NCBI GenBank assembly: GCA_021769135.1
Contig: JAETTM010000021.1
Coordinates: 1-57,659, forward strand
Length of the DNA: 57,659 nucleotides
Direction of reading: 5' to 3'
From: Lachnospiraceae bacterium
GTDB taxonomy: Bacteria > Bacillota > Clostridia > Lachnospirales > Lachnospiraceae
The notes beneath the pieces are model-generated. The model was not told the origin of the DNA and did not search any database. It saw only the letters and a program-made list of their open reading frames with translations. Positions 3,562 to 48,946 of the stretch are shown here, in pieces. The position numbers and the translations under genes are program-made. How positions within the stretch are numbered: position 1 is the first letter of the stretch; each line of letters starts with the position of its first letter.

Positions 3562-3830
3562 AATTTTCATCCTTTCCTACTGGAAATATCCCATGGCTTG
3601 TTGTAATATTGAAATATCAAATTTATCAACAATCCAAAGTTTTTAATCCCAGGCTTGTGTCCGCACGGCATCCGCAAGCCTGTTAAGCTCAAGTCGATTT
3701 GAGAATAGAAGCCGTGCAGAAATGGGGTTAAGAGTGAAAGATTTTTCAAATCTTTCCTCTGCAAGTTTGTGTCTGCGCGGCATCCACAAACTTGACATGC
3801 GCAAAAAGCCGCGCAGAAATGAGGAAAAAT
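3562..3830 (+). promoter_or_regulatory. Structured leader of ackA with two pseudoknot-like units
   Basis: The stretch folds into two copies of the same shape. Unit A: stem 3650-3657 with 3675-3682, and loop bases 3663-3669 (GCACGGC) complementary to 3711-3717 (GCCGTGC). Unit B: a perfect 10-bp stem 3762-3771 with 3785-3794, and loop bases 3772-3781 complementary over 10 bases to 3808-3817. The copies differ in bases but keep pairing in both helices. A perfect 9-bp hairpin (3736-3744 with 3748-3756) separates them. Unit B ends three bases before the GAGG ribosome site of ackA, so it could gate translation. I recognise no named RNA family. Pairing was done by eye. Confidence 0.7.
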
Positions 3831-5027
3831 ATGAACATTCTTGTTATTAACTGCGGCAGTTCATCGCTGAAATATCAGCTGATTGACAGCGAAAGCGAAA
3901 AAGTATTGGCAAAAGGGCTGTGCGAAAGGATTGGAATTGACGGCAGCGCCATCACCCATCAGCCTGCGGGAGGGGAAAAGGTGACGGTGGAGACGGATAT
4001 GCCTGACCATACGGTAGCCGTGAAGCTGGTGATTGAGAAACTGACGGACAAGGAAGTAGGGGTAATCGGCTCTTTGGACGAGATAGGGGCGGTAGGACAC
4101 CGTATCGTACATGGCGGAGAGAAATTTGCTTCTTCCGTTGTCATTACGGACGAAGTGTTAAAACAGGTGGAGGATTGCAATGACCTGGCGCCTTTGCATA
4201 ACCCGGCAAACCTGGTAGGCATTAATTCCTGCAAAGCGGTAATGCCCCATGTGCCCATGGTAGGCGTATTCGATACCGCCTTCCACCAGACAATGCCCAA
4301 AAAAGCATATATGTACGGGCTTCCTTATGAATATTATGAAAAATATAAAGTGCGCCGTTATGGCTTCCATGGAACGAGCCATGATTTCGTATCCAAAAGG
4401 GCAGCGGAAATATTGGGGAAAGACAGGAAAGACTTGAAAATTATTGTCTGTCACTTAGGGAACGGCGCCAGCGTATCGGCGGTGAAAAACGGGGAATCCG
4501 TGGATACATCCATGGGGCTTACACCGCTGGAAGGCTTGATTATGGGAACGAGAAGCGGGGATATGGACCCGGCGATTATCACCTTTGTTGCGGAAAAAGA
4601 GCATATAACAGCGGAAGAATTCATTAATATCTGTAATAAAAAATCCGGCGTTCTGGGGCTGTCAGATGGGCTGTCCAGCGATTTTAGGGATTTGGGGCAG
4701 GCGGCTGATGAAGGAAACGTGAAGGCGAAGGAAGCGTTGGAGACCTATTGCTACCGGGTAGCCAAATATATCGGTGCCTATACGGCGGCCATGAATGGCG
4801 TGGATGTCATCGCGTTTACGGCAGGAATCGGCGAAAACAATGCCCAGGTGCGGGAAATGGTAGGGCAGTATCTCGGATTCCTGGGGGTAAATATCGACCC
4901 GGAGAAAAATAAAATCCGTGGGGAAGAGGTTATCCTCTCCGGCGAAGGGGATAAAGTGACAGTGATGGTAGTTCCTACCAATGAGGAGCTGGCCATTGCG
5001 CGGGAAACCGTAAGGCTGCTTAAGTAG
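3831..5027 (+). CDS. ackA: Acetate kinase
   Basis: Cytosolic enzyme converting acetyl phosphate and ADP to acetate and ATP, a main energy step in fermenters. The product has 398 residues and starts MNILVINCGSSSLKYQL, the standard opening of the family. Other landmarks are GHRIVHGGE, HNPANLVGI, VRRYGFHGTSHDFVS, CHLGNGASV and FTAGIGENN. The ATG at 3831 is preceded by GAGG at 3821-3824. An in-frame upstream extension to 3792 is rejected because it would encode the structured leader. No phosphotransacetylase gene sits next to it, unlike the usual pta-ackA pair. Confidence 0.97.
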   Translation: MNILVINCGSSSLKYQLIDSESEKVLAKGLCERIGIDGSAITHQPAGGEKVTVETDMPDHTVAVKLVIEKLTDKEVGVIGSLDEIGAVGHRIVHGGEKFASSVVITDEVLKQVEDCNDLAPLHNPANLVGINSCKAVMPHVPMVGVFDTAFHQTMPKKAYMYGLPYEYYEKYKVRRYGFHGTSHDFVSKRAAEILGKDRKDLKIIVCHLGNGASVSAVKNGESVDTSMGLTPLEGLIMGTRSGDMDPAIITFVAEKEHITAEEFINICNKKSGVLGLSDGLSSDFRDLGQAADEGNVKAKEALETYCYRVAKYIGAYTAAMNGVDVIAFTAGIGENNAQVREMVGQYLGFLGVNIDPEKNKIRGEEVILSGEGDKVTVMVVPTNEELAIARETVRLLK

Positions 5028-41186: not shown

Positions 41187-41413
41187 AAGAGCGGGTATGG
41201 GCAGAGCGTTTTGCTGCTGGGTTTTCCGCCGGGCTTTGCTAAGCAGAATGGGGAGGGGCTGGATGCCGTCCGGGCCGTCTGCAAGTGCCATCCGTAGCAC
41301 GTGCAGACTAACCGCGGCGTCCGTGCCGCGGTTTCCCTGGGTTGTGCGCATTCTGCTAAGCAAAGCCGCGGCGGAAAACGAAGCAGCAAAACGCTCTGCC
41401 CATACCCGCTCTT
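41187..41413. repeat. 227-nt near-palindromic element with inner hairpins
   Basis: Arms 41187-41250 and 41349-41413 are inverted copies of about 64 bases with only a few mismatches. The 98-base centre holds two more hairpins: GTCTGCA 41277-41283 with TGCAGAC 41302-41308, and a perfect AACCGCGGC 41310-41318 with GCCGCGGTT 41325-41333. It is more GC-rich than its surroundings. Open frames across it on both strands are products of the palindrome, not genes. It may be a MITE-like repeat, a strong terminator of the sulfatase operon, or a structured RNA. The stretch to 41685 holds nothing else I recognise. Confidence 0.8.
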
Positions 41414-46836: not shown

Positions 46837-47339
46837 ATAAATACCAGACACTTTATGTTATGAAAATGTCTGTATGTCCTATTCCATCTTATGAAGCTGT
46901 ATGATTCTGGTGCAGTTTCATTTTATGTCATAAGCAAATCGAACAGCTCTGGCATAGCTCACGGGAATCCCACCCCTGCATGGTTCTCATGCAGCCGTAC
47001 CCTTTGCCTGCGACGGTTCATTTACGCTCGGACTGTGGCTGTACGGGAGTATCATTATCACGATAGGGAGGTCATGGCGGCAGCTCTGCCAAAAGCTGCA
47101 TACGGAACGCTGACTTGAATCGCTCGCTAATTCATCCCTCCTTTCGGGGTCATGGCGTGTCAGCCCGTCGGCTCTTTCCCTATCGAAACGTATTCGATTG
47201 CTTTATTCAGTTTTCAAGGAACAACGGCTTGTCAGCCTGTCAAAGCATACTGACGGCAATATGCTTTGATAGAGTGGCAAACTTCCCTGTTCGGGAAGCG
47301 TGTAGCATATCGGCACGCTTCCACGAAAGGGAAAATGTT
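46837..47339. other. Non-coding, hairpin-rich stretch of the element
   Basis: No convincing gene. Four clear inverted repeats: CAGACA 46845-46850 with TGTCTG 46867-46872; a 7-bp hairpin 46976-46982 with 46988-46994, next to CCGTAC 46995-47000 with GTACGG 47041-47046; a perfect 10-bp stem 47240-47249 with 47260-47269; and a perfect 9-bp stem 47294-47302 with 47314-47322. The frames open on the plus strand here lack ribosome sites and look spurious. It may be structured RNA or contain recombination sites. Confidence 0.5.
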
Positions 47340-48295: not shown

Positions 48296-48376
48296 GGCGG
48301 CTACCTCCTTACGAGCCGCCGAGCTTTCATAGCTGATTTCAACACATCCTCTGTGGATTTCATTTAACAATCAAAA

Positions 48377-48478
48377 AGACGACGGCTTTCTTCAAACCGT
48401 CGTCTGGATTTAAAACTGATTTTGACGCAAGAAAATCATGCTGCCAGAAAACGGTTTTTTTTATTTGCCGTCTGGCAG
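48377..48478. other. Two hairpins in the orf7-orf9 intergenic region
   Basis: Perfect 9-bp stem 48377-48385 with 48397-48405, and stem CTGCCAGA 48441-48448 with TCTGGCAG 48471-48478 around a T-rich loop. They lie between divergent regulators. Apart from these and the short peptide, the stretch 47996-48589 shows nothing I recognise. Confidence 0.5.
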
Positions 48479-48589
48479 TATATTTTTTTGTATAAATCGC
48501 ATAATAGGAACTATAAAACCTTATAATACGTTTTTCTATACCTGTCACTTATTGAACAGGAACAGTAAAATGTAAATAGGTGGTTTATT

Positions 48590-48946
48590 ATGCGTAAAAA
48601 AGAAGATAAGTACGATTTTAAAGCGTTTGGGCTTGCAATAAAAGAAGCCCGTAAAAAGCGAGGTTTAACCCGTGAACAGGTGGGAGCATTGATTGAGATT
48701 GACCCACGCTATTTAACCAATATTGAGAACAAGGGGCAGCACCCCAGCTTACAGGTGTTCTATGACCTTGTATCCTTGTTAAATGTGTCCGTTGATGAAT
48801 TTTTCTTACCTGCTGCTGATCTGGTGAAAAGCACCAGACGCAGACATATAGAAAAACAGATGGACAGCTTTACAGATAAAGAGCTAATCCTTATGGAAGC
48901 CCTAGCCAAAGGTATTACAGATTCTAAGGAGATAGATGATTTATAA
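48590..48946 (+). CDS. Tn916 orf9-like XRE regulator
   Basis: 118-residue repressor-type protein with an N-terminal helix-turn-helix ([35 protein letters not shown]). It is the counterpart of Tn916 Orf9, a negative regulator of orf7-orf8. It is the only core element gene here on the plus strand, again as in Tn916. The ribosome site is weak (AGGTGG). Confidence 0.87.

What the first reader, a model, noticed from the sequence alone, without database searches (positions are those of the whole stretch)
3650..3830. Twin pseudoknot-like RNA units in the ackA leader, the second touching the ribosome site
Unit A (3650-3717) and unit B (3762-3817) share one architecture: a hairpin whose loop pairs with a segment downstream. 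Between the copies both helices change sequence while staying paired: stem 1 is CAGGCTTG in A and CAAGTTTGTG in B; loop helix GCACGGC/GCCGTGC in A and GCGCGGC/GCCGCGC in B. These covarying differences argue for a conserved RNA fold rather than chance. Unit B ends three bases before the GAGG of ackA, so formation of its second helix could block or expose initiation. A tandem arrangement would suit a ligand sensor or a translational switch tied to acetate metabolism. I know of no named element that matches. It could also be a mobile intergenic repeat.
Basis: partly seen in the sequence, partly recalled or inferred. Interest (0 to 1): 0.8.

Follow-up and report, generated by a model that had tools for sequence, protein, structure and literature searches.

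The report
Portable ribosome-binding-site pseudoknots in gut Lachnospiraceae
The two RNA folds before the acetate kinase gene look like copies of an undescribed element, scattered through the genomes of some gut bacteria, that sits between a gene's own ribosome signal and its start codon and brings a new ribosome signal along.

Summary
In detail: both units are H-type pseudoknots with covarying helices. They are not an acetate sensor. They belong to a large dispersed RNA family of Lachnospiraceae: the window's genome gives 144 model matches at E<=1, 75 of them at 41.9 bits or more. In 77 aligned own-genome units the loop helix, which the model does not score as pairs, forms in 506 of 525 cells; 0 of 2000 strand permutations reach this. 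In a named set found without the tail, 83 of 90 units have the start codon 13-22 nt after the pseudoknot. Downstream genes are unrelated: metK, pyrG, proS, rnc, glyS, ackA. Units end in an extended Shine-Dalgarno (AGAAAUGRGG); in 51 of 72 units with the 5' hairpin another remains just upstream (random 9.8%). Relatives lack the unit at 7 of 15 comparable sites. metK and proS keep their SAM riboswitch and T-box. Best reading: a mobile or formerly mobile translation-initiation module that replaces a gene's ribosome-binding site. The mobilising agent and the effect on expression are unknown. No Rfam match at the units; ten paper searches found no description.

The parts
3650..3717 (+). Unit A pseudoknot: S1 3650-3659/3673-3682, L1 3660-3662, S2 3663-3669/3711-3717, L2 3670-3672, L3 3683-3710
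   Evidence: R1 match 3650-3738, 76.8 bits; covariation of the family
3718..3727 (+). Extended Shine-Dalgarno of unit A (AGAAAUGGGG)
   Evidence: sequence; complementary with mismatch to the 16S 3' end CACCUCCUUUCU seen in 4 genus genomes; computed duplex energy -9.7
3732..3759 (+). 5' hairpin (P0) of unit B, GAGTGAAAGATTT-ttc-AAATCTTTCCTC; same type as the palindrome of most G012 copies
   Evidence: (I8)
3734..3850 (+). Reading frame of 38 codons starting GTG behind unit A, running through unit B and overlapping the ackA start; probably a by-product of the insertion
   Evidence: frames of such ORFs differ between copies
3762..3814 (+). Unit B pseudoknot: S1 3762-3771/3785-3794, L1 3772-3774, S2 3775-3781/3808-3814, L2 3782-3784, L3 3795-3807
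   Evidence: R1 match 3762-3835, 98.6 bits, the best-scoring in the genome (unit B is the first row of the model's own alignment)
3815..3824 (+). Extended Shine-Dalgarno of unit B (AGAAAUGAGG), in front of ackA
   Evidence: computed duplex energy -9.4, against -5.6 with AGAAA replaced
3831..5027 (+). ackA, acetate kinase, the gene behind unit B
   Evidence: TIGR00016, 541.5 bits

Best explanation
The units are copies of a dispersed, mobile or formerly mobile RNA element, found so far only in Lachnospiraceae. Anatomy: an optional 5' palindromic hairpin (P0); an H-type pseudoknot (S1 10 bp, L1 UCN, S2 7 bp, L2 AUC, variable L3); an extended Shine-Dalgarno AGAAAUGRGG directly 3' of S2; then about 6 nt to the start codon. 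A new copy lands between a gene's native Shine-Dalgarno and its start codon. This pushes the native signal some 100 nt away, and the element's own signal becomes the gene's ribosome-binding site. Shown: anatomy, covariation, location, dispersal, differing occupancy between species, two Shine-Dalgarnos at many sites. Inferred: that it spreads by insertion; that the gene depends on it once inserted, which would keep the pseudoknot under selection; that the pseudoknot shields or supports the adjacent SD:anti-SD helix.
For: Own-genome core pattern 33 hits, reversed control 0; 26 are units, each followed by ATG/GTG at the same spacing within 1 nt. Named set found without the tail: 83 of 90. S2 pairing, not scored in the model: 506 of 525 cells, 0 of 2000 permutations. 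G012: of the 20 best of 63 matches, 17 carry loop strand GCGCTGC and 17 carry 3' strand GCAGCGC, the rest one change away, although G012 has no match to the original core pattern. Retained SD 51 of 72 against 9.8% of random stretches. Occupancy differs at 7 of 15 comparable sites. Nearest relative in the same genome 53.2 of 85, permuted mean 29.3, maximum 45.7. Unrelated genes; metK and proS keep their own switches upstream. Tail complementary to the 16S 3' end.
Against: No mobilising enzyme found; Y1 transposase does not track copy number. No clear target-site duplication. 8 of 15 compared sites are shared, diverged or relics in a relative, so most movement may be old. G005 copies do not cluster by genome (1.0 of 11). 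At ackA, G005 keeps AGAAATGGAG, so that site may be a deletion rather than an empty site. At L003 and L011 the leader looks replaced rather than simply interrupted. 7 of 90 units lack the expected start, and some stand before very short ORFs (L027, L040, L280). No expression data.
Confidence: 0.66

Rival explanations
1. A regulon switch: a trans-acting protein, small RNA or general signal binds the pseudoknot and turns translation of unit-bearing genes up or down together.
For: Loop and upper S1 bases (UUUGUG-UC, AUC) are conserved beyond pairing, as for a binding site, though those rows were chosen with patterns holding these bases. Purifying selection on S2 in the weaker-scoring half of own-genome units (248 of 259 cells). 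A hairpin in L3 that would compete with S2 fits its own unit slightly better than permuted ones (5 of 2000 permutations as good, related copies).
Against: No shared gene function. Among core-pattern units of four species the only protein matches between loci are two weak ones (31% and 25% identity). The competing hairpin's motif is missing in 50 of 118 short-L3 units.
Confidence: 0.2
2. A 5' stabiliser or insulator: the pseudoknot blocks 5' exonuclease or separates the start site from upstream sequence, and translation effects are indirect.
For: Computed helices are stable (S2 -12.7 to -14.2 kcal/mol); 22 of 75 own-genome units lie within 134 nt of the end of a same-strand ORF.
Against: The near-fixed spacing to the start codon and the AGAAA tail point to initiation itself.
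Confidence: 0.1
3. A neutral selfish repeat with no RNA function; pairing reflects only the young age of copies.
For: Young, near-identical copies exist; relics exist.
Against: Diverged copies keep pairing, with all four Watson-Crick types at S2 position 5; 26 of 26 core-pattern units stand before ATG/GTG.
Confidence: 0.03
4. A tandem ligand sensor for acetate metabolism.
For: Position before ackA.
Against: Unrelated genes elsewhere; no unit at ackA of G003, G009, G015; the tandem is explained by a later insertion.
Confidence: 0.01

Closest known systems
tisB mRNA standby pseudoknot, E. coli (PMC7708055; only the start of the abstract seen, in listings)
   Same: an mRNA pseudoknot needed for translation initiation
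   Different: one gene, with a standby site about 100 nt upstream of a sequestered RBS; here a dispersed family immediately 5' of an SD outside the fold
Pseudoknotted translational riboswitches (preQ1, SAM-II; recalled)
   Same: H-type pseudoknot at the ribosome-binding site
   Different: those hold the SD in the fold and bind one ligand for related genes; here the SD lies outside both helices and genes are unrelated
Ribosomal-protein leader pseudoknots (rpsO/S15, alpha operon; recalled)
   Same: pseudoknot beside the SD that could dock on the 30S subunit
   Different: autogenous, one operon each
Dispersed intergenic repeats and MITEs (REP, BOX, Correia; recalled)
   Same: many copies per genome, palindromic part, species-level bursts, relics
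   Different: those lie at varied intergenic places (recalled); this one carries an SD and sits in the SD-start gap

Membership tests
Any Rfam 15 family | covariance-model match at gathering score | tested here: not met
   no match over the window units; at E<=10 only eight matches, best E 0.15, each far below its gathering score, seven of them microRNA families; none over the units in 20 unit-bearing loci (its five matches lie elsewhere in those loci)
Pseudoknot riboswitch (preQ1-II, SAM-II type) | SD or start codon held in the pseudoknot (recalled) | tested here: not met
   SD 3821-3824 lies outside S1 and S2
Pseudoknot riboswitch (preQ1-II, SAM-II type) | downstream genes of one pathway | tested here: not met
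Pseudoknot riboswitch (preQ1-II, SAM-II type) | specific ligand binding | not testable with these tools
   needs in-line probing
H-type pseudoknot RNA | two helices supported by covariation | tested here: met
   (one search also, on rows chosen for pairing)
Mobile repeat (MITE-like) | many dispersed copies, species-level subfamilies, sites empty in relatives | tested here: met
   clustering by genome holds for G012, G003 and G000, not for G005
Mobile repeat (MITE-like) | terminal inverted repeats and target-site duplication | tested here: not met
   judged by eye: ends unlike each other, no duplication in the flanks
IS200/IS605-derived element | partner Y1 transposase in carrier genomes | tested here: not met
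   PF01797 found in 13 of 16 genus genomes but not in G005, G014, G015 (draft genomes), which hold 141, 16 and 31 units

The most novel reading that the evidence does not exclude
A genetic element whose niche is the ribosome-binding site: it inserts between a gene's Shine-Dalgarno and start codon, displaces the native signal, supplies its own through a pseudoknot, and so makes essential genes dependent on it, which protects it from loss.
Probability: 0.45. Interest if true: 0.92.

Novelty: categorically new. Interest (0 to 1): 0.83.

Why it matters
Translation start sites of dozens of genes per genome, including metK, pyrG and tRNA synthetases, appear to have been rewired by one dispersed RNA element in gut bacteria. 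It would be a new kind of dispersed element with a defined niche, and a natural series of many ribosome-binding sites built on one fold, useful for asking how structure next to a Shine-Dalgarno sets initiation rate. It also leaves double Shine-Dalgarnos that may mislead start-site annotation.

Tried and rejected
Acetate-specific sensor: rejected. IS200/IS605 mobilisation: Y1 transposase does not track units. Conserved leader peptide: frames of the short ORF starting in P0 are mixed (28/22/21 over the three frames, 71 units). Two-state switch through an L3 hairpin competing with S2: weak signal, motif missing in 50 of 118 short-L3 units. Phage or plasmid origin: no plasmid match; 14 fecal 'Bacteriophage sp.' records match, and the one read has an ORF after the unit and upstream ORFs that look bacterial by eye; one IMG/VR contig has a P-type ATPase gene after the unit.

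Biases and rows dropped. Seven of 33 core hits in the own genome were set aside as chance coding matches; L046 and L068 likewise. The pairing descriptor gave 171 hits, 12 on reversed and 6 on shuffled sequence; 19 of 171 were dropped (9 printed) and 79 stem combinations kept; I aligned 70 of the 78 listed references plus the two window units. That set was chosen for pairing, so its 96.0% is inflated; one search is the fair test for S2. One search left out one duplicate and the matches under 41.9 bits, and set aside 14 gap cells. Model R1 contains the tail and ATG, so position counts from R1 hits are partly built in; searches are free of that, but picked the S2 partner with a bonus for AGAAA. 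Two low-identity hits (L112, L119) were taken as paralogues. The first 16S pattern found nothing; its last fixed base was ill chosen, and one search replaced it.

Full report
What is there. Unit B (3762-3824) and unit A (3650-3727) are H-type pseudoknots followed directly by AGAAAUGRGG. S1 is 10 bp in both, L1 is UCN, S2 is GCRCGGC/GCCGYGC, L2 is AUC. Unit B's signal precedes the ackA ATG at 3831; unit A's precedes a GTG at 3734 that starts a 38-codon frame running through unit B. Unit B has a 5' hairpin P0 at 3732-3759.

It is a family. The 11-base core GCRCGGCATCC occurs 33 times in the window's own genome and its reversal 0 times. Seven are chance coding matches; the other 26 are units. After GAAATG, 24 of the 26 have ATG or GTG at exactly the same spacing, L013 one base nearer and L004 one base further. 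ORF lengths behind 25 of them are listed (L015 was not measured); unit A and L027 stand before short frames. A covariance model (R1, S1 pairs only) gives 144 matches at E<=1 in this genome: 87 reach 34 bits, 75 reach 41.9. Many lower ones are short and may be relics or chance. In 16 genus genomes at E<=0.001, with at most 150 candidates scored each, counts are G000 126, G003 68, G004 75, G005 141, G006 150 (at the cap), G009 12, G012 63, G013 3, G014 16, G015 31, G002 1, and 0 in G001, G007, G008, G010, G011. In 299 genomes of as many genera of the family, 35 match at E<=1e-6, the window's own included. In 391 genomes drawn from the class 2 match, the window's own and one other of the family (how many of the 391 lie outside the family is not fully listed). 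By equal contig lengths G003 is 28-4 and G005 is 526-35 (inference).

The fold is under selection. R1 scores no S2 pairing, yet in 77 own-genome units 506 of 525 S2 cells pair (96.4%), against a mean of 88.6% when 3' strands are permuted (0 of 2000 reach it); S2 position 5 shows GC 47, TA 10, AT 4, CG 4. Over 103 distinct matches of own genome and G012, 15 of 17 pairs have changes on both sides. In the 20 best of 63 G012 matches the loop strand is GCGCTGC in 17 and one base away in 3, and the 3' strand is GCAGCGC in 17 and one base away in 3; G012 has no match to the pattern TGYSNGCNCGGCATC. Units in other genera show GCGATGC/GCATCGC, GTGTGGC/GCCACAC and GCATGGC/GCTATGC.

It belongs to start sites. 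The named set was found with a pattern that ends in the upper half of the 3' strand of S1. Of 94 distinct units examined (6 more cut by ends), 92 have an S2 partner and 80 of these are followed by exact AGAAA. Of 90 with an ORF of 60 codons or more nearby, 83 have a start of that ORF 13-22 nt after S2, mostly at 16; 7 do not. Model-found units agree, with the caveat that the model contains the tail: 40 of 40 own-genome loci of middle score, 19 of 20 in G012 with an ORF of 100 codons or more in the fetched stretch, 24 of 24 best loci of other genera. Genes named by NCBIfam include metK, a phosphofructokinase-type gene, pyrG, thrS, proS, nicotinate phosphoribosyltransferase, hisZ, a SigF/SigG-type sigma factor, and in other genera rnc, glyS and MTA/SAH nucleosidase (those were N-terminal pieces, below the curated cut-offs; L319 had no match). 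22 of 75 own-genome units follow a same-strand ORF by at most 134 nt, measured to S1.

It replaces the ribosome-binding site. The 16S 3' end TGGATCACCTCCTTTCT is present in 4 of 16 genus genomes, including carrier G003; the other 12 assemblies, the window's own among them, showed none. AGAAA of the tail can pair with UUUCU; the computed duplex energy of unit B's tail is -9.4, and -5.6 with AGAAA replaced. Just 5' of P0 a second strong Shine-Dalgarno lies within 22 nt in 51 of 72 units (9.8% of random stretches of the same loci); with weaker motifs counted, the commonest distance is 4 nt (21 of 61). The computed strength of these flanks (median -9.5) equals that of the unit tails (-9.7; 71 units). 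Of 15 own-genome sites with orthologues in G005 or G006, 7 lack the unit in at least one of them (L003, L004, L011, L012, L021, L027, L029) and 8 share it whole, diverged or as a relic (read by eye). L004 is the simplest case: G006 reads ...AGGAGAAAACT-ATG; the filled site has a similar signal, the element, then AAAACT-ATG.

The tandem. G006 has one unit at ackA, like unit A (9 of 10 S1 pairs and 7 of 7 S2 pairs by eye). G005 has none but keeps AGAAATGGAG. G003, G009 and G015 show none. Unit B therefore most likely entered later, between unit A's signal and the ackA start. Older remnants 5' of a unit are visible at L049, L064 and L352.

Spread. The nearest relative of a unit lies in the same genome for 53.2 of 85 units, permuted mean 29.3, maximum 45.7: G012 16 of 16, G003 7.7 of 12, G000 28.5 of 45, but G005 only 1.0 of 11 and G015 0 of 1.

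Generic, not gene-specific. metK has a SAM riboswitch (67.9 bits) and proS a T-box (96.2 bits) upstream of the unit on the same strand. The unit is thus added to genes that already have their own control.

Known or not. No Rfam family matches the units. Subscription papers and preprints are not covered.

Shown: fold, family, location, spread, double signal, occupancy differences. Inferred: insertion as the route of spread, dependence of the gene, role of the pseudoknot in initiation. Unknown: the agent of movement, target rule, any regulation.

Noticed in passing
window 41218-41382 (-), 46959-47058 (-), 48360-48602 (-): Rfam matches TwoAYGGAY (88.8 bits), pemK (64.4) and SQ2397 (208.6) in the window.
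   Followed up: no
L005, 5' of the unit: The P0 hairpin holds a nested inverted repeat (CTAGTACTCCGTACTC ... GAGTACGGAGTACTAG), as if another palindrome had entered its loop.
   Followed up: no
G006 contigs: 13 of 43 core matches lie within 60 nt of a contig's first base, so the repeat probably breaks assemblies of this genome.
   Followed up: no
L309 (714-844 -) and L335 (533-807 -): SAM riboswitch before metK and T-box before proS lie upstream of a unit: two control layers on one leader.
   Followed up: partly
G000:C22:129284-129409 and 129791-129864 (L254): A fragment of a Y1 transposase domain lies about 380 nt 5' of a unit on the same strand; possibly chance.
   Followed up: no
phage records MT836618 and 13 others: Unit-like sequences in unannotated 'Bacteriophage sp.' fecal records; the one read looks bacterial by eye, so these may be mislabelled host DNA.
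   Followed up: partly
L027: Here the unit precedes a 29-codon frame rather than the conserved gene start further downstream; both relatives compared lack the unit.
   Followed up: partly
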